Below are positions 8,089-17,486 of a stretch of 64,000 bases of DNA, one piece after another. The stretch is from Barnesiella viscericola DSM 18177 (GTDB lineage Bacteria > Bacteroidota > Bacteroidia > Bacteroidales > Barnesiellaceae): assembly GCF_000512915.1 (NCBI RefSeq), contig NZ_CP007034.1, positions 2,542,501 to 2,606,500 on the forward strand, read 5' to 3'. The notes under the pieces are model-generated. The model saw only the letters and a list, made by a program, of their open reading frames with translations, was not told the origin of the DNA and did no database searches. Each line of letters begins with the position of its first letter. Within the stretch, counting starts at the first letter, position 1. A program made the position numbers and the translations under genes.

Positions 8089-9198
8089 ATGTGTGGGAGA
8101 GCAAAGAGACTGATAGGTAAGATGATACTCGCTTGTCTCGTGGCAGAAGGAATATTGGCCTGTGACCGGACGATTCATGAGTATCCCCGTTCGACCGATG
8201 TAGTGGTGCTGGTCGAACTGAATGCCGACCGCACGCCGCCTGTATATTACAAAGGGTTGAACTATAATGAGAAGGGCGAATATTTTGAAGAGGAGTTGAC
8301 CCCCGAACCATCGCGGGCTTATGTGCCCGATGAACGCCTGTGTACACGATTTGTTGTCGAACTGTATCGGCTACCTTCGGCCAGTGCTACGGTGGATAAG
8401 GGGCTATTGTACGAACGGCGCGAGATAGTTGCCGACCGTTTGGCACAACCGCCTCAGGACACGTTGGCCTTCCATGTGCCCGAGGGATATTACCGAGTAT
8501 TGGCCTGGGGCGATTACACGCCCGAAACCCAGACAGGAGATTGGCACTATGATACCCATCGGCTGAATGCAGTGAAGGAGAATGTCGACCAGACGCTGCA
8601 AGTCAATCACCACAAGAACTCGGCGGCAGGCAGTTGCGACTTTTCGGTTATGTCGAATCGTCGTGGCAATGAGGTGTCGGTAGGGATTGTGGGGAATCTC
8701 GCTTCAATCACTCCGGCCGGCGACCCTATCGTGACGGTCCACATGGAACGACCTTCGGGACGTTTTCGTCTGTGGGCAACCGATTTGGAGGAGTTTTCCA
8801 AGAAGAGAGCGCTGTCGGTAAACGATTTGCAAATCAAGATTGTTTATAAGCAGTATGTGAGCGTGGGGTATAACGTGGAGACATCGACCCTCAACGCGTT
8901 TATCGAGTCGCGCGACATGGATATGACCCCGGTAACGGTGGCCGACGACGGCTCTCTGCTGCTGGCCTATGACTATGTGCTCACCGACGATGGTCGGGAA
9001 GATCATGTGCTTATCGATGTGTTTGTCTATGACGAAAATGGCGATGAGGTGAACCATTACCAGAATATCGATGTACCGTTGTACCGTAATCGGGAGACTG
9101 TCCTGAGAGGTCCGTTCCTGACTCAAAACGTGGGCAGCGGCGACATCGGTATCGACGATGGCTTCGATGATGAATTTGTCGTGGTGATACCCGATTGA
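8089..9198 (+). CDS. Mfa2/FimB-like fimbrial lipoprotein (Mfa-like family)
   Basis: 369 residues. The signal sequence ends in a lipobox (GILAC, Cys25), so the protein should be lipidated and exported. A two-domain beta-sandwich look is suggested by alternating hydrophobic segments. YRVLAWGDY at about residue 137 is a motif I associate with FimB/Mfa2 and related fimbrial anchor families. The C-terminus is acidic (DIGIDDGFDDEFVV). It lies between the DUF3575 protein and a fimbrillin-like lipoprotein, the usual place for an anchor or regulator subunit. The exact Pfam family (DUF5119, FimB/Mfa2 or DUF6562) cannot be settled by eye. Confidence 0.65.
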   Translation: MCGRAKRLIGKMILACLVAEGILACDRTIHEYPRSTDVVVLVELNADRTPPVYYKGLNYNEKGEYFEEELTPEPSRAYVPDERLCTRFVVELYRLPSASATVDKGLLYERREIVADRLAQPPQDTLAFHVPEGYYRVLAWGDYTPETQTGDWHYDTHRLNAVKENVDQTLQVNHHKNSAAGSCDFSVMSNRRGNEVSVGIVGNLASITPAGDPIVTVHMERPSGRFRLWATDLEEFSKKRALSVNDLQIKIVYKQYVSVGYNVETSTLNAFIESRDMDMTPVTVADDGSLLLAYDYVLTDDGREDHVLIDVFVYDENGDEVNHYQNIDVPLYRNRETVLRGPFLTQNVGSGDIGIDDGFDDEFVVVIPD

Positions 9199-9237
9199 GA
9201 AGGATATATACAGTTAATCATTATATAAGATTTTGTT

Positions 9238-11253
9238 ATGAACAAGAGTTGTTATCTGATAGGAATAGCGTTGCTGGGACTGGCAACCGGCTGTTCCGAA
9301 ATGACGGAAGAACCCGGGTTGAATCCGCATGGCGATGTGATAAGCCTGCGATTCGAAGTTCCCGAGGTGATGCAAGTGACACGTTCCATGCCGGGGACCA
9401 ACAGTGCCTATGGAGGCCTGACAAATGTGGATTGGAGTAAATACGATCTTCGTTATCAGGTGGCGGTCTACACGGAAGACGGTTCGACGCAACTTGTCGC
9501 ACCGCAGGTTCAGACGGTCGACACCTATGGACCGGTGGCTTTTGAATTTAGGCTCACTCCCAACAATACCTATAAGTTTGTGGCTTGGGCCGACTATGTG
9601 CGGCAGGGCGAGACGGCTGACTTGCATTACAATACGGCCGATTTCACTCGTATCGCAATACAAGATGCTCCGGAGGCTCAGTTGAACGACGAGAGCCGCG
9701 ATGCCTATTTCTTCTCCAAGAATATTGCGGTGTCGCAGACCTTCGGGGAGACCATGACGCTGAAACGCCCCTTTGCCAAGTTGCGGGTAGTGACGACCGA
9801 TTGGGGCGCCGAAGGTATGTCGATGCCCGATAACTTCAAGGTGGCTTATCACGATTGTACCCGGTTTGCCGAGTTGAATGCCGTTACCGGCGAGGCTGCG
9901 GGCAGTGCCGATGCCGACGTTGCTACGGTCTATACGGCGGCTCTCGCACAGGACGAGGCGGGCGACAAGCTCTATGAAGGGGGCTATGACGCTACCGCCG
10001 GAAACCGTACCCTGCTTGTCGATTACCTCATTGCCGGTGATGCCCAGCAGGCTATCCATTTCAATGTAGAGATGCTCAAAGGCGACGCTCCTATCGTGGA
10101 GAAAGATTTCACGACCAATATCCCCATACAGCGCAACTACCTCACCACGGTTCTGGGTAACTTGCTTACTGTGGGCGGCAGTGTGACCATCGACATCGAC
10201 GAGGGCTTTGTCAACGGGTGGACCGACGGACAGGAGTGGTGGAGCGCTTCGCCGGTGACCCCGGTAGAACCGGCCTGTGACGAGATCCGCAATGCCAGCG
10301 GTCAGGCGGTGAGGACCTATCACATCTACACGCGTGAAGAGTTTGCCTGGTTGCCCGACCACATCTACGACATGGTTACCGAGAGCTATACCGACGACCA
10401 GGGTGCCGAGCAGCGGAAGGCTGCGGTGACTACGATTCTCATCGAGAACGACATCGATATGAGCGGTGTGGACTGGAAACCCATCTATACGACCGGCGAA
10501 AATACCTATACGGTCGACGGTCAGGGTCATGTGCTGCGCAATTTCTCGATGAACGGGCAGTTCGGTGCCGTGTATGAATACAAACTGGGGCCCTTCGTAT
10601 TGGGTACCTATCATGCTTATACCGGTGTGTGGGGTAAGTTCGAAGGGGTGATGAAGAATCTGACCTTCGAGAACATTACCATCAACGGCCTGGCCAACAG
10701 CGAGGTCGATGTCGATACCGAAGGTAACCCCGTCGACCACAGTCAGGAGTATGCCTACTTTGCCGGTTGCATCGGTTACACCGGAGCCAATTACAGTACG
10801 GTGGTCAATATCGAGAATGTGCAGGCCCGTCACGTGCGCATCAGAGCTTCCGACGGTTTGCAGACTCAGAATGTAGGCGGTCTCATCGGTTGGATCGGTG
10901 TGGGCGGCGGTAATACCTGGTTGAAGGATTGCTCCGTCGACGACATCATGATAACCGGCTATCAGGCCGGAGGTCTGGTCGGTCAGGTGGTTGGCGGCCG
11001 CGGTGTAGCCTTTACCCGGTGCAGTGCCGAGAATGTGACCTTGCGCATGCGGGGCTTTGCCAGCACGGGCATTTCGGGCTTCATCGGCCAGTTCAACGAC
11101 GGTGCCGGCTCCAAAATCGAGCAGTGCACCTACCCGACGAATGTGCGCTACCTCGACGATGAAACCGGGCTCCCCGACGAGAGCTACAAGCCCGACAGCC
11201 CTTACTACGGCTATTGCAGCTATGGCAAGGATACGCCAACCATTGTCGAGTAA
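9238..11253 (+). CDS. Large fimbrillin-like surface lipoprotein with GLUG-type repeats
   Basis: 671 residues. The lipobox is LATGC (Cys19), followed by acidic residues (SEMTEE) of the kind linked to surface export of Bacteroidetes lipoproteins. The first about 330 residues form a fimbrillin/DUF6562-like region (TYKFVAWADYV). After a proline-rich hinge (TPVEPA), residues of about 400-650 hold repeated glycine motifs (GGLIGWIG, AGGLVGQVVGG, ISGFIGQF) like GLUG or right-handed beta-helix repeats, often seen in adhesins. It is the last gene of the operon and ends before a strong terminator. Surface adhesin or tip subunit is the best guess. Confidence 0.7.
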   Translation: MNKSCYLIGIALLGLATGCSEMTEEPGLNPHGDVISLRFEVPEVMQVTRSMPGTNSAYGGLTNVDWSKYDLRYQVAVYTEDGSTQLVAPQVQTVDTYGPVAFEFRLTPNNTYKFVAWADYVRQGETADLHYNTADFTRIAIQDAPEAQLNDESRDAYFFSKNIAVSQTFGETMTLKRPFAKLRVVTTDWGAEGMSMPDNFKVAYHDCTRFAELNAVTGEAAGSADADVATVYTAALAQDEAGDKLYEGGYDATAGNRTLLVDYLIAGDAQQAIHFNVEMLKGDAPIVEKDFTTNIPIQRNYLTTVLGNLLTVGGSVTIDIDEGFVNGWTDGQEWWSASPVTPVEPACDEIRNASGQAVRTYHIYTREEFAWLPDHIYDMVTESYTDDQGAEQRKAAVTTILIENDIDMSGVDWKPIYTTGENTYTVDGQGHVLRNFSMNGQFGAVYEYKLGPFVLGTYHAYTGVWGKFEGVMKNLTFENITINGLANSEVDVDTEGNPVDHSQEYAYFAGCIGYTGANYSTVVNIENVQARHVRIRASDGLQTQNVGGLIGWIGVGGGNTWLKDCSVDDIMITGYQAGGLVGQVVGGRGVAFTRCSAENVTLRMRGFASTGISGFIGQFNDGAGSKIEQCTYPTNVRYLDDETGLPDESYKPDSPYYGYCSYGKDTPTIVE

Positions 11254-11270
11254 TCAAGACGAATCATGGA

Positions 11271-11310
11271 TACGAGAAACCCCGGCTCATGAAAGCCGGG
11301 GTTTCTCGTA
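11271..11310. terminator. Bidirectional terminator between convergent genes
   Basis: A perfect 17-base inverted repeat (11271-11287 and 11294-11310, core CCCCGGCT/AGCCGGGG) with a 6-base CATGAA loop. It lies between the fimbrillin-like gene on the plus strand and the TonB receptor on the minus strand. Confidence 0.85.
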
Positions 11311-11348
11311 TGGGGCAGCCTCCGAACGTTTTTACGATGGGCAAGCGG

Positions 11349-13271
11349 TTAGAAATTCAGGTTTACACCGGCCATGACCGTCGCTTTGGGCATGGGGTAA
11401 CCGGCGTTGATTTCGTAGCGTTGGGCCAGCAGGTTCTCACCTCGGGCCCACAGGCCGAGCCAGCGGTTCACGCGGAACGAGGCGTTGAGGTTCCACAGGA
11501 CAAACTCTTCGGTCTGGCTGTTGCTGCCCACGGCGGTATAGAGATTGTCGATGTATTGCACGCCGGTAGAGACGGTCCACCGTTTGTGGGTGTATTGGGC
11601 ACCGGCATAGAGTTTGTGCTCGGGAGCACCCACCACGGGATTCTCCATGTGCAGATAGCTGTAATTGGCCTCGACCGACCAGTGCGGGTCGATGCGATAG
11701 CTCACCTCGGCCTCCACGCCGCAGTTGTCGATTTTGCCGGTATTCTGGTTCAGCATACCCGTACCGTTGGGGTTGGGCAGCGTGACGATGAGGTTCTTGC
11801 CGTCGATGTAGAAGAGGTTGATGCCATAGGCGATGCGGTTGTCGAGCAGGTGCTGGGCAAAGGCCAGTTCGTAACTCCACATCGACTCGGGTTTCAAGTT
11901 GGGGTTTTGGGGCGGGAACATGTACATCTCGCGCAGAATGGGGTAGCGGAATCCCTTTGCCGCCGAGGCTTTCAGCTCGATGGTGCGGGGCAGGTGGAAC
12001 GAGAGTCCGGCTTGCGGTACCCATTCGGTCCCTATCCGCGAGTGGTGGTCGATGCGCACGCCGGCATCGAGGGTGAGCCATTGTTGTATGTTTTGCCGGA
12101 AGTCGACATATCCGGCCAGCTCGTCCTCGTGCTTGTCGACCAGGTCGCTCGTCGTGCCCGCCTTGTCGCCGCTCACGAACTTGTTCCAGGCATGGCCGCC
12201 GTAACGGAACCAGTCGAAGCCGAAGGTGATGCGGTTGCCCGGGAAGAACCGGGTGCTCTGGTAGAGCGACAGACCCAGCATGTTGTCGAACGAGAGGAAG
12301 CGGCTCTCTTGCGGGTCCTCGCCCAGCGAGGGGGTGTAACCGTCGTTAATCCAGTGGTTACCCCAGTTGTAGAAGAAGCTGGCGGCTCCCGATGTCTTTT
12401 CATATTTGTTTCCTACGGCAAACGAGGTCATGCCGCGGGTGATGCGTTGGTCGCCTTCGAGCAGCGGAGCACTCACCGGACCCGGGTAGGAGGCGTTGAA
12501 GTGGGTCACGTTCACGTCGCCGCGCAGGTTCCAGTTGCGGGTTACCTCATAGCCCAGTTTGGCATAGCCGCCGTATTGCTCGAAGCCCATGTCTTTGCGG
12601 TGGCCGTCGGTGCGGTTGTACGAGCCGCTGATGAGGCTCGAAAACTTGCCTTTCTTGATGCGGTTGGTCACCTCGCTTTGCAGCGTGTTGAACGAGCCGT
12701 ATCCCAGGTTGACGTTGGTCTTCACCCCCTCCTCGTGCATGCGGCGGGTGACGATGTTGACGACGCCGCCCATGGCATTCGAGCCATAGAGCACCGAGGC
12801 CGGTCCGCGCAGCACCTCAACCCGTTCGGTCATAAGCGACTGGTAGGCATCGGAGATGGGGTGGCCGAAGATGCCGGCATATTGCGGGTGGCCGTCGATG
12901 AGTACCATCAGCCGGCCCGAGCCACCGCTCAATCCGCGCAGCGAGATGTTCCCGGCAGCGCCGCCCGATACGCCGTAGCCCATGATGCCTCGCGAGGTCA
13001 CGAAGAGGCCGGGTACCTGCTGGGTGATTACCGGCAGCACCGAGGGTTGCATGCTCTGCTCGATTTCCTCACGGTCGATGACCGAGACGGTGAGGGGCAG
13101 ATGCCGCACGTCGGTTTCGTTGCGGGTGCCGGTCACCACCACCTCGTTGATATGAATCGGGTCGGCGGGATTCCCGGCCAGAGCCAGGAGCGAGTTGTTG
13201 TCGGTGTTGTCGATTTGGGCCGATGTTATTCCGGCCATCATTGAAAACAGGAGTAAAAATCTGGTCCTCAT
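11349..13271 (-). CDS. TonB-dependent outer-membrane receptor
   Basis: 640 residues from the ATG at 13271, chosen because it opens a signal peptide (MRTRFLLLFSMMAGITSAQ); an upstream start at 13352 gives a polar extension. A TonB-box-like stretch (INEVVVTGTRNETD) and a plug domain (ISLRGLSGGSGRLMVLIDGH, VEVLRGPASVLYGSNAMGGVVNIV, given here as two blocks) precede the barrel, which ends NLNF. The regulatory-like N-terminal extension is absent, so it resembles vitamin B12, haem or siderophore receptors rather than SusC. It is last in a minus-strand run after two Fe-S reductase-like genes and a polyferredoxin, 157 bases behind the nearest one. The substrate is unknown. Confidence 0.85.
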   Translation of the reverse strand: MRTRFLLLFSMMAGITSAQIDNTDNNSLLALAGNPADPIHINEVVVTGTRNETDVRHLPLTVSVIDREEIEQSMQPSVLPVITQQVPGLFVTSRGIMGYGVSGGAAGNISLRGLSGGSGRLMVLIDGHPQYAGIFGHPISDAYQSLMTERVEVLRGPASVLYGSNAMGGVVNIVTRRMHEEGVKTNVNLGYGSFNTLQSEVTNRIKKGKFSSLISGSYNRTDGHRKDMGFEQYGGYAKLGYEVTRNWNLRGDVNVTHFNASYPGPVSAPLLEGDQRITRGMTSFAVGNKYEKTSGAASFFYNWGNHWINDGYTPSLGEDPQESRFLSFDNMLGLSLYQSTRFFPGNRITFGFDWFRYGGHAWNKFVSGDKAGTTSDLVDKHEDELAGYVDFRQNIQQWLTLDAGVRIDHHSRIGTEWVPQAGLSFHLPRTIELKASAAKGFRYPILREMYMFPPQNPNLKPESMWSYELAFAQHLLDNRIAYGINLFYIDGKNLIVTLPNPNGTGMLNQNTGKIDNCGVEAEVSYRIDPHWSVEANYSYLHMENPVVGAPEHKLYAGAQYTHKRWTVSTGVQYIDNLYTAVGSNSQTEEFVLWNLNASFRVNRWLGLWARGENLLAQRYEINAGYPMPKATVMAGVNLNF

Positions 13272-13428
13272 GAGTGGATACAATTCTTCTTTGTGGTTAT
13301 ACAAATCGGTTGTTTCGGAGATCTCTCCTTTCGGTTGCCCCGCTGCATGCACTCACAGCATCACAGGGGAGGGGCCCGAAGGGTCTCTCTCTGTTTAGGT
13401 TTTCATTGTCGTTCTTGCGTGAACTGTG

Positions 13429-14577
13429 TCAGTAGCCAAACCGTTGGGCCGCCCGTTGCATCGACTCGATAATCTTCACCCCGAAGGGGCAGCGCGTTTC
13501 GCAGGCGCCGCAGGTGATGCACTCCGAGGCGTGATGTTCGAGCGCCTTGTAGTGTTCCCGCACGGTTTCGGGAATCTCCCCTTGTGCAACAGTCAGGTTG
13601 TAGAATTTGTTCACGGCGGCGATGTCGATTTTCGACGTGCAGGGTGCGCAGTGGCCGCAATACATGCAGTGACCCCGCCAGGAGAAGCGGTCGAGGTGGG
13701 TCATCACCGCGGTGTAGTCGCGCTCCTCGGGAGTAGCCCGGCACCAGGCTACGGCCGCTTCTATCTCGTCCTGCGTCTTGCAGCCCAGCATGACGGCAGC
13801 CACGGCGGGGCGGGTGAGGGCGTAGTCGATGGCCTGCACGGGGGTGAAGGCACAGCCGAAGGGTGAGTTCTCCCGGTCCAGCAGGTCGCCGCCGCCGAAG
13901 ACCTTCATCACGTCGATGGCCACCCCTTCGCGTTCGCACAGGGCATAGAGCTGCTCGCGGGCCGGGTCGACATTGTGCAGGGCGCCGGCATAGCTTTGCT
14001 GGTCGAAGAGCACGTCGACATCTTCGTTGGGCGGGAGCAGGTCGTAGCAGGGGTTGATGGAGAAGAGCAGCACATCGATGAGCCCCGTCTTTACCGCCAT
14101 ACTGGCTACAATCGGGTTGTGGCTGCTCATGCCGATGTGTCTGATTTTCCCCTCGGCTTTCAGCCGTTGGGCTATCTCGATGATTTCGTGGTCGAAGACG
14201 GTGTGGAAATCCTTCTCGGCGTCGACATAGTGAATCATGCCCACGTCGACGTGGTCGGTGCGCAACGCTTTGAGCAGGGCGTCGAACGACTCGATGGTTT
14301 TCTTCGGGTCGCGGGTGCGCAGATACTGGTCGTTCTCCCAGACGGTGCAGAGGTGACCTTGTATGACGAAGCGGTCGCGGCGGCCTTCCAGTGCCTGCCC
14401 GATGTGGGCACGCAGGTCGGGGTTCGACGAGTAGATGTCGACGAAGTTAATACCCCGGTCGATGGCAAAGTCGAAATCGGCTTTTACCTCCTGGGCGCTC
14501 TTGTTGATGAACCCTTCACAGCCGAGGGCGATGGCACTTACCTGTATGCCGGTGTGGCCTAATGTGCGGTATTCCAT
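13429..14577 (-). CDS. Aldo/keto reductase-like protein with C-terminal 2x[4Fe-4S] domain
   Basis: 382 residues with no signal peptide, so probably cytoplasmic. The N-terminal TIM-barrel region reads MEYRTLGHTGIQVSAIALG, as in the aldo/keto reductase family. Two ferredoxin motifs close the protein: Cys304, 307, 310, 313 and Cys353, 356, 359, 363. By alignment in my head, Asp47 and His116 of the catalytic tetrad are kept, but the Tyr position holds Asn52 and the Lys position His75. The reductase chemistry may therefore be altered. The start is 8 bases past the stop of the Tat-exported paralogue, so the two are co-transcribed and possibly partners. Confidence 0.8.
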   Translation of the reverse strand: MEYRTLGHTGIQVSAIALGCEGFINKSAQEVKADFDFAIDRGINFVDIYSSNPDLRAHIGQALEGRRDRFVIQGHLCTVWENDQYLRTRDPKKTIESFDALLKALRTDHVDVGMIHYVDAEKDFHTVFDHEIIEIAQRLKAEGKIRHIGMSSHNPIVASMAVKTGLIDVLLFSINPCYDLLPPNEDVDVLFDQQSYAGALHNVDPAREQLYALCEREGVAIDVMKVFGGGDLLDRENSPFGCAFTPVQAIDYALTRPAVAAVMLGCKTQDEIEAAVAWCRATPEERDYTAVMTHLDRFSWRGHCMYCGHCAPCTSKIDIAAVNKFYNLTVAQGEIPETVREHYKALEHHASECITCGACETRCPFGVKIIESMQRAAQRFGY

Positions 14578-14585
14578 ATGTGGGT

Positions 14586-15968
14586 TTAAAATTCTTTACC
14601 TTGTTTCAAATCCTCGACAAAGCGGTCGATGCGGTGCAACTCCTTGGGAATGTTGATGCTTTGCGGACAGTGCGATACACACTGGTGACACCCGATGCAG
14701 TGGCTGGCCTGGCGCAACTTGGGTACGCTGCGGTCGTAGCCCACGAGGAAGGCCCGGCGAGCCTTGCGATAGTTCTCGTCCTGCGACGAGGCGGGTACGT
14801 TGCCCTCGTTGATACACTTGTTGTAGTGGACCAGAATGGCCGGTATGTCGATGCCGTAGGGGCAGGGCATGCAGTACTTGCAGTCGTTGCAGGGAATGGT
14901 GGGGTAGCGCAGCATCAGTTGGGCCGTCTCTTCGAGAAACGCCAGATCGTCGTCGGTGAGCGGGTGCAGGGGAGAGTAGGTGCGCAGGTTGTCCTGCAAG
15001 TGCTCCATGTAGGTCATGCCGCTCAGTACGGTGAGCACGTCGGGGAAGGAGCCGGCGAAGCGGAAGGCCCACGAAGCTACGCTCGCCTCGGGCGTGTGTT
15101 GTTTGAGCGTGGCGGCGATGTGGTCGGGCACATTCGACAGCCGGCCGCCCAGCAGGGGCTCCATGATGACGGCGGGAATATTGCGTTTTTTCAACTCGGC
15201 ATAGAGGTACTCGGCATTGACGTTGTTGCCCGAGGCGTGCCGCCAGTCGACGTAGTTGAGCTGTATCTGCACGAAATCCCAGTGTACGGTCTCGTGCATG
15301 GCCAGCACCTCGTCAAAGACCGCCTGGGTGCCGTGGAACGAGAATCCCAGGTTGCGAATGCGGCCGGCCTTGCGCTCCTCAACGAGGAAGTCGAGTATGC
15401 CGTTGTCGATGTAGCGGGCCCGGAAGGTCTCGATACCGCCGTTGCCGATGGAGTGGAGCAGGTAGTAGTCGATGTAGTCGACTTGCAGGTTCTCGAACGA
15501 TTTGCGGTACATGGTGATGGAGTTCTCGCGGGTGAAGTTCGAGAAGTTCGACAGCTTGGTCGCTACGAAATATTTGTCGCGCGGATAGCGTTTGAGGGCG
15601 ATTCCGGTTGACTTCTCCGACCCGCCCTGCATGTAGACGGGGGAGGTGTCGAAGTAGTTCACGCCGTGGGCGATGGCATAGTCGACCAGTTCGTTGACCG
15701 CCTCCTGGTCGATGGTGCTGCGGGTGCCGTCGGGCGAGGGAATGTTGGGGAGCCGCATCATGCCGTAGCCGAGCAGCGACACCCGGTCCTGAGTCTTGGG
15801 GTTGGTGCGGTAGGTCATCTGGTCGGTGGGGACTTCGGTTGTGGCCGTATGGGCCGCCTCTTGCCGGTTCTTGCAGCCGGGCAGAACGGTGGCCGAGGCG
15901 AGGGCCGTGCCGCCCAACACTTTCAGGAAGTTGCGGCGGTTTATATTTTTATTCGATTTGTTTTCCAT
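14586..15968 (-). CDS. Tat-exported aldo/keto reductase with C-terminal 2x[4Fe-4S] domain
   Basis: 460 residues. The N-terminus has a twin-arginine motif (INRRNFLKVLGG, Arg11-Arg12) and then a lipobox-like LPGC (Cys32), pointing to folded export by Tat and possible lipidation. The barrel keeps the classical tetrad positions: Asp107, Tyr112, Lys138 and His172. Two [4Fe-4S] motifs follow (Cys360, 363, 366, 369 and Cys424, 427, 430, 434). An extracytoplasmic Fe-S reductase needs electrons from the membrane, and the polyferredoxin encoded just upstream (21 bases) could supply them. Family and export signal are clear; substrate and partner are inference. Confidence 0.85.
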   Translation of the reverse strand: MENKSNKNINRRNFLKVLGGTALASATVLPGCKNRQEAAHTATTEVPTDQMTYRTNPKTQDRVSLLGYGMMRLPNIPSPDGTRSTIDQEAVNELVDYAIAHGVNYFDTSPVYMQGGSEKSTGIALKRYPRDKYFVATKLSNFSNFTRENSITMYRKSFENLQVDYIDYYLLHSIGNGGIETFRARYIDNGILDFLVEERKAGRIRNLGFSFHGTQAVFDEVLAMHETVHWDFVQIQLNYVDWRHASGNNVNAEYLYAELKKRNIPAVIMEPLLGGRLSNVPDHIAATLKQHTPEASVASWAFRFAGSFPDVLTVLSGMTYMEHLQDNLRTYSPLHPLTDDDLAFLEETAQLMLRYPTIPCNDCKYCMPCPYGIDIPAILVHYNKCINEGNVPASSQDENYRKARRAFLVGYDRSVPKLRQASHCIGCHQCVSHCPQSINIPKELHRIDRFVEDLKQGKEF

Positions 15969-15989
15969 TGTTTCCGAGGTTTTGAAAGG

Positions 15990-17486
15990 TTAGATGATGC
16001 GGTGATTCTTGTGCCCTTCGACATAGATGGCGCTGAACGGCCGTGCCGGACACAGGTTTTCGCAGGTGCCGCAGCCGATGCAACGCTCCACGTTCACGAC
16101 CGGAATCTTGGGTGAGTCGGCCACGTCGGGGTTCGAGGCGACCATCTGAATGGCGCTGGTGGGGCAGTGGCGGGCACAGTTGCCGCAATCCACCCCGTCG
16201 GTCAGGGGCACGCAGTTCTCCTTTACCCACACGGCATGACCTATCTGTATGCTCGATTTCTCGGCCACGGTGATGGGACGAATGGCGCCGGTGGGGCACA
16301 CCTCGGAGCAGCGGGTGCACTCGGGGCGGCAATAGCCCCGCTCATACGACATCTCGGGTTGCATGAAGGTCATCAGGTTGCCCGAGGGGCGCAGCACCTG
16401 GTTGGGGCAACTCGATATGCACAGCTGGCAGGCCGTGCAGTGCTGGGCCAGATGCGAGGCACTCTGCGATCCCGGCGGGGTGATGGGGGTAGCCCGTTTG
16501 GGAACCTTCTTTTCTTCGATGGCGGCCAGTCCGCCGTCGACCTTCATCTCTTGAGCTTTCAGCAGGGCGCTGCCGGCCAATACACCGGTGAGCGTCAGGA
16601 ACTCCCGGCGGGAGTTGTTGCCCGTCTGTTTTTCGGGAGCAGCCGGGTGTTCGGCCTTTTTAGCAGCCCGGGTGCGGGGCACGTAATGAATGGCATGTTG
16701 GGTGCATCGGCCTATGCAGTCCATGCACACCACGCAACGGCTGTAATCGATGGCGTGGTTCTTGGCATCGATGCACGAGGCTTTGCAGTTGCGGGCACAC
16801 GTCTGGCAGCCGTTACAGCGGGTGGTGTCGATGGTGGGGCGGAAGAGCGAAAAGCGCGACAGTAGCCCCAGCGTGGTGCCTACCGGGCAGATGGTGTTGC
16901 AGTAGGTGCGTCCGTTGCGCCAGGCCAGCACGACGATAACCACCAGCGTGATGATGGCGACGATGAGCGAAGGGAGGCTTTTGAGCCACACCTCGGTCGA
17001 GTAGAAGGCGTAGCTGTCCATGCGCTCGGCCAGGAGAGCCAGCAGGTTGTTGCCCCACCGGTAGACCGGGGCAAAGAGGTTGGTGGCTATGCGGCCGTAG
17101 GCGCTGTATGGTGCGATGAGGGCGGCCCAGGAGGCAAACCCGGCGACCAGTGCGGCGATGAAGATGACCAGCATGCCGTAGCGCAGCCACGAGAGGGCGC
17201 GCGAGTAGCGGAACCGGTGTTTCTTGCGTTTGCCGGCTATCCACGAGACAATATCCTGGAACACGCCCAGCGGGCAGATAACCGAACAGTAGATACGCCC
17301 GAAGAGCAGGGTCAGTGCCACGAGCAGGACGATGACGCCCACGTTCAAGGCCAGTATGGCCGGCAGGAACTGTATCCGGGCCAGCCACCCGAACCACAGG
17401 TGCATTGTCCCCGTAAAGTCGAGGAACAACAGGGTGATGAGCGCAAAACAGATAGTAGCAGCGACTATTCTGATTTTTCGTAACAT
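15990..17486 (-). CDS. Polyferredoxin membrane protein, NapH-like, with internal twin-arginine motif
   Basis: 498 residues. About four membrane segments (near 6-22, 44-62, 104-124, 172-188) carry the CxxxCP pairs RIYCSVICP (64-72) and TYCNTICP (194-201) typical of NapH/RnfB-like quinol-linked proteins. Ferredoxin motifs follow at Cys224-238 and 251-261. Residues 292-297 read SRREFL and precede a hydrophobic stretch (GVLAGSALL), an internal Tat-like signal. After it come four more Cys clusters (350-360, 386-397, 434-441, 469-479). It looks like a NapH-like and a NapG-like protein fused in one chain that could carry electrons across the inner membrane. It is the first gene of the minus-strand redox operon. 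Confidence 0.85.
   Translation of the reverse strand: MLRKIRIVAATICFALITLLFLDFTGTMHLWFGWLARIQFLPAILALNVGVIVLLVALTLLFGRIYCSVICPLGVFQDIVSWIAGKRKKHRFRYSRALSWLRYGMLVIFIAALVAGFASWAALIAPYSAYGRIATNLFAPVYRWGNNLLALLAERMDSYAFYSTEVWLKSLPSLIVAIITLVVIVVLAWRNGRTYCNTICPVGTTLGLLSRFSLFRPTIDTTRCNGCQTCARNCKASCIDAKNHAIDYSRCVVCMDCIGRCTQHAIHYVPRTRAAKKAEHPAAPEKQTGNNSRREFLTLTGVLAGSALLKAQEMKVDGGLAAIEEKKVPKRATPITPPGSQSASHLAQHCTACQLCISSCPNQVLRPSGNLMTFMQPEMSYERGYCRPECTRCSEVCPTGAIRPITVAEKSSIQIGHAVWVKENCVPLTDGVDCGNCARHCPTSAIQMVASNPDVADSPKIPVVNVERCIGCGTCENLCPARPFSAIYVEGHKNHRII

What the first reader, a model, noticed from the sequence alone, without database searches (positions are those of the whole stretch)
11349..17486. 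Operon joining a trans-membrane polyferredoxin, two Fe-S aldo/keto reductase-like proteins and a TonB receptor
Four minus-strand genes share tight spacing (21 and 8 bases, then 157) and one direction. The products can be arranged as an electron path from the inner membrane to a Tat-exported Fe-S reductase, next to an outer-membrane importer. This would suit reduction of an imported compound, such as a metal chelate or a cofactor, in the periplasm. Separate family members are known, but I cannot name a described pathway that uses all four.
Basis: partly seen in the sequence, partly recalled or inferred. Interest (0 to 1): 0.65.

Follow-up and report, generated by a model that had tools for sequence, protein, structure and literature searches.

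The report
Modular periplasmic reductase-plus-importer operon
A gut bacterium carries one operon that pairs an electron-carrying membrane protein and an exported iron-sulfur reductase with an outer-membrane importer whose nearest outside relatives mostly sit beside NikR-type regulator genes, which suggests a way to take up and chemically reduce a scarce, probably metal-containing compound.

Summary
The four genes, spacings and direction are as described. In Barnesiella they look like one transcription unit: a promoter-like block before the first gene is conserved in 9 of 9 species, and a 19-bp perfect hairpin follows the TonB receptor (TBDR). All four occur together in 8 of 9 Barnesiella species, hardly elsewhere.

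The unit is one version of a modular Bacteroidales system. Its core is a NapH-NapG-like polyferredoxin plus AKR1, a Tat-type 4Fe-4S aldo/keto-reductase lipoprotein with intact tetrad: adjacent in 95 of 104 usable AKR1 loci. Optional partners: DUF1893/TM1506 (42), an orphan ECF S-component (26), TatC (20), the TBDR (18), a LarA-clan DUF362 protein (7). AKR2 is nearly genus-specific, without signal peptide and without two catalytic residues.

The TBDR is specific: 22 of 24 close homologs found by an independent search sit by a module gene; in the next score tier 19 of 25 sit by nikR. I therefore favour a nickel-type metal complex or organometallic cofactor, imported and then reduced in the periplasm. 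Substrate, electron direction and joint function are inferred; most of those NikR proteins have unusual metal-site residues. Salvage of a nickel-pincer-like nucleotide is the boldest reading not excluded.

The parts
15990..17486 (-). Polyferredoxin, NapH-NapG-like fusion: 4 predicted TM helices, two CxxxCP motifs, two 4Fe-4S motifs, then an RR-hydrophobic stretch (about residue 290) and further 4Fe-4S motifs
   Evidence: Pfam; NapH/MauN E 1e-21 and NapG E 3e-18, both below cut-off; hydropathy scan and Cys list
14586..15968 (-). AKR1: Tat-signal lipoprotein (predicted), aldo/keto reductase domain plus two 4Fe-4S motifs
   Evidence: invariant R11 R12, C32, D107 Y112 K138 H172 and eight cluster Cys in 12 of 12
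13429..14577 (-). AKR2: Fe-S aldo/keto-reductase-like protein, no signal peptide, tetrad Tyr and Lys absent; next to AKR1 in 9 of 9 Barnesiella
11349..13271 (-). TonB-dependent receptor of a clade that is mostly either module-linked or nikR-linked
13272..13428 (-). 157-base gap; no promoter match, no conserved RNA structure; a DUF1893 gene lies at this place in L053
17549..17571 (-). Conserved promoter-like block upstream of the polyferredoxin gene, in 9 of 9 Barnesiella (one base missing in L049)
11270..11311 (-). 19-bp perfect hairpin after the TBDR stop, terminator-like (no long T run), before the convergent DUF6562 gene
   Evidence: -37.9 kcal/mol, z -6.97, 0 of 200 shuffles as stable; not listed by the simple terminator scan

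Best explanation
The operon builds a cell-envelope reduction module tied to an importer. Shown by sequence: (1) the TBDR belongs to one clade whose members mostly sit either beside nikR or in this kind of module; (2) polyFd and AKR1 form a conserved pair, AKR1 carrying a Tat-type signal, a lipobox-like Cys, Fe-S motifs and an intact catalytic tetrad; (3) other genomes add a solitary ECF S-component for the inner membrane, a DUF1893/TM1506 protein and a LarA-clan DUF362 protein in the same unit. Inferred: the TBDR brings a nickel-type metal complex or organometallic cofactor into the periplasm; quinol electrons pass through the NapH-NapG-like polyferredoxin to the clusters of AKR1, which reduces the cargo (or a protein that binds it) in the periplasm; where an ECF S-component is present the product is taken further into the cell. 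The window's species keeps the outer-membrane and periplasmic half, lacks DUF1893 and ECF-S, keeps a DUF362 gene elsewhere, and has AKR2, probably a cytoplasmic Fe-S protein without classical AKR catalysis.
For: Pair conserved in 95 of 104 AKR1 loci. TBDR searched without regard to neighbours in 295 genomes: 22 of 24 hits above 800 bits (window included) lie within 6 kb of AKR1, DUF1893, ECF-S, DUF362, polyFd or the PRTase of a sister module, 12 of 24 near AKR1; of 25 fetched hits at 584-772 bits (26 exist) 19 have nikR and none a module gene. NikR_C found in 19 of 19 of these regulators. TBDR tree: 36-row module clade 100/99 with one nikR-linked receptor (L237) nested inside it, another (L244) joined to a module one (99/99). 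H137, H224, H306, M167, M627 at 94-100% in both groups (32 and 22 rows). In several genomes the TBDR start overlaps DUF1893 or is 1-30 bases away. Promoter and hairpin. ECF S fold: the best 19 PDB rows are S-component chains, Z 10.6-14.4, next row 7.5; EcfT gene not found in 13 of 15 ECF-S-bearing genomes tested.
Against: 86 of 104 AKR1 loci have no TBDR, so the reductase works without it. No NikR in 9 of 9 Barnesiella, and no LarC or LarA in the four Barnesiella in those searches, so a known nickel need is not shown there. Only 6 of the 19 NikR proteins keep the QHxHL pattern at the presumed metal site; 9 have QY(Y/F)(L/I) and 4 differ otherwise, so their metal is uncertain. The plug His H128 is 94% in the module group but Gln is the commonest residue (45%) in the nikR group. 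My search for a shared NikR box failed. Foldseek gave no ECF-S match at E 0.001 or better (best 0.018). AKRs normally take hydride from NAD(P)H, which is not expected in the periplasm (recalled). Direction of electron flow is not testable here.
Confidence: 0.37

Rival explanations
1. PolyFd-AKR1 is a general periplasmic reductase (of a dietary or host carbonyl or quinone, or of a protein), and the TBDR is a passenger or separate function that shares the transcription unit in some lineages.
For: 37 of 104 AKR1 loci show only polyFd as partner and 5 none, 86 of 104 lack the TBDR; 10 of the 22 module-linked TBDRs lie away from AKR1, by DUF362, ECF-S, DUF1893 or PRTase.
Against: When the TBDR is away from AKR1 it mostly stays with other genes of the same module, and sister modules combine polyFd with ECF-S, a Tat-signal DUF362 and in some loci a TBDR instead of AKR1, so reductant and importer are recombined repeatedly.
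Confidence: 0.3
2. Iron: the TBDR imports a ferric siderophore or heme and AKR1/polyFd release iron by reduction in the periplasm.
For: NCBIfam matches include siderophore and heme receptor models, all shown ones below cut-off; an exported flavodoxin joins 9 of 104 loci.
Against: Nearest outside relatives are nikR-linked in 19 of 25. Passages of a Bacteroidetes iron-stimulon paper (PMC10434189) that I saw do not name such an operon; I did not read its tables in full.
Confidence: 0.13
3. An organic vitamin such as a corrinoid or a queuosine precursor is the cargo.
For: BtuB is the nearest solved receptor by sequence; the ECF S-component touches PF12822 below its cut-off, the family to which PMC11130926 assigns QrtT (passages); a nucleoside hydrolase lies by 7 of 25 nikR-tier TBDRs.
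Against: TIGR01779 (B12 receptor) scores 152 against a cut-off of 599.7; no Rfam family at gathering threshold in six module loci; none near the operon in the window.
Confidence: 0.1

Closest known systems
NapGH / MauMN quinol-dehydrogenase ferredoxins
   Same: Four TM helices with CxxxCP motifs followed by 4Fe-4S motifs, and a NapG-like RR segment with further clusters; both models hit the one protein
   Different: Fused in one chain, below both curated cut-offs; partner is an AKR lipoprotein
Aldo/keto reductases with C-terminal 4Fe-4S domain (COG1453 type, name recalled)
   Same: AKR barrel plus two 4Fe-4S motifs; tetrad intact in AKR1
   Different: AKR1 has a Tat-type signal and lipobox-like Cys; AKR2 lacks two tetrad residues
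NikR-linked TonB-dependent receptors (predicted nickel TBDRs; C. abyssi loci in PMC5317091, passages seen)
   Same: Same clade, GxPQ(Y/F/W)xGxxGH plug motif and His/Met positions as nikR-adjacent Bacteroidales receptors
   Different: Window genus has no NikR; receptor sits with a reductase. I did not compare the C. abyssi receptors themselves
Solitary ECF S-components (BioY, BtuM; recalled)
   Same: S-component fold, EcfT not found in 13 of 15 genomes tested
   Different: Own family, no PDB sequence relative (best E 1.6, unrelated); not found in the window's genome
LarA superfamily (nickel-pincer nucleotide enzymes)
   Same: DUF362 is in the same Pfam clan (PMC11770544, passage); the H-x9-K-x15-H spacing of two LarA sequences is kept in 7 of 7 module-type DUF362 (my reading of sequences printed)
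   Different: Signal-bearing, about 330 aa, far below LarA cut-offs; hhalign to two LarA sequences found nothing; the Tat-type DUF362 lack the third position

Membership tests
NapGH-type quinol:periplasm electron carrier | NapH- and NapG-like domains | tested here: inconclusive
   Both match (E 1e-21, 3e-18) but score 77.5 and 65.9 against cut-offs 213 and 269 bits
NapGH-type quinol:periplasm electron carrier | Oxidises quinol | not testable with these tools
   biochemistry needed
Aldo/keto reductase superfamily (AKR1) | Barrel and D-Y-K-H tetrad | tested here: met
   PF00248 128.5 bits against 24; D107 Y112 K138 H172 invariant in 12 of 12
Aldo/keto reductase superfamily (AKR2) | D-Y-K-H tetrad | tested here: not met
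   Tyr and Lys positions replaced in window, L051, L053 and six more distant homologs aligned; a seventh (L229) was cut out wrongly and dropped. The barrel match itself is above cut-off (66 bits)
Nickel (NikR-linked) TBDR | Close homology to nikR-adjacent TBDRs | tested here: met
   584-772 bits for the nikR tier against about 90 for BtuB with the same alignment; tree
Nickel (NikR-linked) TBDR | nikR in the genome or a NikR box at the gene | tested here: not met
   No NikR in 9 of 9 Barnesiella. The box search on nikR loci found nothing, so no box could be sought in the window
Nickel (NikR-linked) TBDR | Transports nickel | not testable with these tools
   needs uptake assay
BtuB vitamin B12 receptor | TIGR01779 cut-off, B12 riboswitch | tested here: not met
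   152 of 599.7 bits; no cobalamin riboswitch at gathering threshold in the window or six module loci
ECF S-component (partner gene in other genomes) | S-component fold | tested here: met
   Z 10.6-14.4 to 19 S-component rows, then 7.5; Foldseek prob 1.00 for the best five rows, E 0.018-0.16
LarA / NPN superfamily (DUF362 partner) | Lar_N or LarA model match and Lys/His spacing | tested here: inconclusive
   Lar_N below cut-off in 5 of 8 module-type DUF362 scanned (E 1.6e-4 to 6.3e-3), none in L053, L048, L209; LarA model E 1e-6 at 27.8 of 460 bits in the one scanned; spacing kept, profile comparison negative

The most novel reading that the evidence does not exclude
The module is a salvage system for a nickel-pincer-like nucleotide (or another organonickel cofactor): a NikR-clade TBDR imports it; periplasmic enzymes (AKR1 with polyferredoxin, DUF362, and in related loci a nucleoside hydrolase, mostly fused to an FmdE domain) reduce or trim it; a solitary ECF S-component takes the base in; DUF1893/TM1506 (a family reported to ADP-ribosylate) or a phosphoribosyltransferase makes it a nucleotide again; LarA-clan DUF362 proteins use it. 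LarC, needed to make the nucleotide, was not found in 34 of 34 ECF-S-bearing or 49 of 49 strong-AKR1 genomes, although 37 of 295 genomes have it; host-associated lifestyle could explain that too.
Probability: 0.08. Interest if true: 0.9.

Novelty: new variant of a known kind. Interest (0 to 1): 0.55.

Why it matters
It gives a testable function to a gene pair spread over gut Bacteroidales (record titles include Bacteroides, Phocaeicola, Parabacteroides, Alistipes, Barnesiella, Odoribacter, Dysgonomonas) and to several unknown families (DUF1893, DUF362, an orphan ECF S-component) that recur with it. If the cargo is a metal-organic cofactor, it would show that these bacteria reduce an imported cofactor in the periplasm before use.

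Tried and rejected
RNA element in the 157-base gap: no family near the operon at gathering threshold in the window (one search found six tRNAs elsewhere), only hits far below their gathering scores in the gap, fold little better than shuffles (z -1.03, 27 of 200 as good), not conserved among sister species; rejected. B12 by riboswitch: none. NikR box by exact inverted repeats: nothing shared by two loci; the test was crude. LarA-DUF362 profile alignment with hhalign: no useful alignment (global mode, only two LarA sequences). The LarA rows were wrong ORFs (a permease) and are not used; its DUF362 rows are. One search scored only the best five candidates per genome. One search ended with an error after its main tables were printed; those are used. 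Row L229 was mis-cut and dropped. Rows dropped before the counts: 4 duplicate AKR1 loci, L103 and L104 (AKR1 under 600 bits), and 29 of 133 unique loci with too little flank. One of 26 TBDR hits of the nikR tier (G197) and 16 of the 18 weaker ones were not fetched.

Papers: full-text searches (searches found no paper). Passages only were seen of PMC11770544, PMC11796402, PMC8946771, PMC5317091, PMC11130926, PMC10434189; no paper was read whole. Residue roles in LarA and NikR, the Bacteroides promoter consensus, NapGH, BioY/BtuM and COG1453 facts are recalled.
Full report
WHAT IS THERE. The window lies in a Barnesiella genome (9 genomes of one genus searched; the record titled Barnesiella sp. 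An22 carries the same locus as G004 of that genus). Four minus-strand genes, with gaps of 21, 8 and 157 bases, run polyferredoxin - AKR1 - AKR2 - TBDR. Upstream lies a divergent Nudix gene. Between the two, a block around aaaatctttgcgtattttcgtag is kept in 9 of 9 species and looks like a promoter; a relaxed match to the recalled Bacteroides consensus is found there once (0.02 expected by base shuffling), but its second half lies outside the conserved block and is not kept in the sister species; no match lies in the AKR2-TBDR gap. Just after the TBDR stop is a 19-bp perfect hairpin, then a convergent DUF6562 gene. The gap of 157 bases shows no conserved RNA. In sister species it is 26 bases (L052), or it holds a DUF1893 gene (L053, gaps 14 and 4). 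I read the four genes as one unit.

THE PROTEINS. The polyferredoxin has four hydrophobic helices, two CxxxCP motifs and several 4Fe-4S motifs, and matches both NapH and NapG models below their cut-offs; an RR-FLTLTG stretch near residue 290 divides the two halves. AKR1 has an RRxFLK-like start and a Cys at 32; the two Arg, the Cys, D107, Y112, K138, H172 and eight cluster cysteines are invariant in 12 of 12 homologs. It is most likely a Tat-exported lipoprotein; tatC itself lies in the gene run of 20 of 104 loci. AKR2 has no signal here, although four distant homologs (L223, L224, L226, L227) begin with lipoprotein-like signals; it lacks the tetrad Tyr and Lys. AKR2 homologs are few: 12 of 295 genomes at E 1e-40, of which the four sampled Barnesiella and one other (G029, 62%, on another contig than its AKR1) reach 60% identity; locus L131 (uncultured Alistipes) has one beside AKR1, DUF1893 and DUF362.

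THE MODULE. AKR1 orthologs with E under 1e-150 are in 49 of 295 Bacteroidales genomes (my count). From I fetched 59 neighbourhoods, second copies, five further Barnesiella and two weaker paralogs included, and 80 more by the record search, and annotated them with models made from their own members. After removing duplicates, weak paralogs and short contigs 104 remain: polyFd 95, DUF1893 42, ECF-S 26, TatC 20, TBDR 18, exported flavodoxin 9, DUF362 7, AKR2 6. These loci were chosen for closeness to AKR1, so the counts describe that sample. The fullest form is polyFd-AKR1-AKR2-DUF1893-TBDR-DUF362-ECF-S in L053, a Barnesiella. DUF1893 is absent from the other 8 of 9 Barnesiella genomes; ECF-S was found in G003 but not in G000, G005 or G008. 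A module-type DUF362 survives elsewhere in the window's genome (C1:2420761).

THE ECF PARTNER. Its AlphaFold model (mean pLDDT 88) matches ECF S-component chains: 19 rows at Z 10.6-14.4, next 7.5. Foldseek alone gives prob 1.00 but no E-value under 0.018, and there is no sequence relative in the PDB. EcfT was not found in 13 of 15 tested genomes that carry it, so it seems to work alone there. Where it lies away from AKR1 it often sits with DUF1893, with a TBDR and TatC, or in sister modules made of ECF-S, a phosphoribosyltransferase, a Tat-signal DUF362, polyFd and in some loci a TBDR; a few copies (L199, L200) have no such neighbour in view.

THE RECEPTOR. To avoid bias I searched the TBDR alone in 295 genomes (68 hits in 67 genomes). 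Of 24 hits above 800 bits, the window included, 22 have a module gene within 6 kb (12 have AKR1); the exceptions are L231 and L233. Of 26 hits at 584-772 bits I fetched 25: none has a module gene, 19 have nikR next door (NikR_C in 19 of 19) and 7 a nucleoside hydrolase, 6 of these 7 fused to an FmdE domain; an eighth locus has an FmdE protein only. Solved receptors are far away (BtuB about 90 bits). The tree (only two outgroup rows, some long branches) gives the module receptors a clade of 36 rows with 100/99 support, with one nikR-linked receptor inside and most others outside. A plug motif GxPQ(Y/F/W)xGxxGH in the rows printed and H137, H224, H306, M167, M627 are common to both groups; H128 is not. 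That is the strongest clue to the cargo. It is weakened by the missing NikR in Barnesiella, by unusual residues at the presumed metal site in 13 of 19 NikR proteins, and by my failure to find a NikR box.

HOW IT MAY WORK. TBDR import, then reduction by quinol-polyferredoxin-AKR1 in the periplasm, then (in other species) inner-membrane import by ECF-S. Import specificity, the electron donor and the reaction are inferred. DUF1893 matches TM1506, a group that a review calls auto-ADP-ribosylating (PMC8946771, one passage). DUF362 shares a Pfam clan with LarA (PMC11770544, passage), and the LarA spacing H-x9-K-x15-H is present in 7 of 7 module-type DUF362 printed, but profile comparison failed and Lar_N matches stay below cut-off (5 of 8). 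LarC occurs in 37 of 295 genomes and in none of the 34 with ECF-S or the 49 with strong AKR1 (about 4 and 6 expected if independent, my arithmetic); gut lifestyle may explain this. From these pieces comes the novel case, salvage of an organonickel nucleotide, which I hold at 0.08.

VERDICT. The foursome is close to Barnesiella-specific; the wider reality is a modular reductase-importer system with a receptor from a nikR-linked clade. Searches found no paper holding these terms together in the library used; most subscription papers are not in it.

Noticed in passing
L239, L252, L255, L261 (nikR, TBDR, nucleoside hydrolase); L246, L253, L259 (no nikR in reach); L258 (FmdE only): A nucleoside hydrolase, fused to an FmdE domain in 6 of 7, lies by a TBDR of the nikR tier in several Bacteroidales; why is unexplained.
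   Followed up: partly
L193, L194, L195, L196, L197, L198, L203: Sister modules built from ECF-S, phosphoribosyltransferase, Tat-signal DUF362 and polyferredoxin, some with a TBDR; not every locus has all parts.
   Followed up: partly
L068:6778-9057, L071:6717-9167, L234:7555-9843: DUF1893 and the TBDR lie in one open frame without a stop between; fusion, readthrough or error not resolved.
   Followed up: no
L190:4562-5767, L191:6949-8151: A 400-aa protein (the L190 one weakly matches deoxyhypusine synthase, TIGR00300 and GSU2086 models) sits before ECF-S and DUF1893.
   Followed up: no
L240-L245, L247, L248, L250: NikR-like regulators with QY(Y/F)(L/I) at the presumed metal site; they may sense something other than nickel.
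   Followed up: partly
L279 (G000:C1:2420761-2421399): Module-type DUF362 lipoprotein kept unlinked in the window's own genome.
   Followed up: partly
8089-11253: Two DUF6562 proteins, convergent with the operon.
   Followed up: no
13305-13390: GC-rich hairpin-forming stretch in the AKR2-TBDR gap, not conserved.
   Followed up: yes
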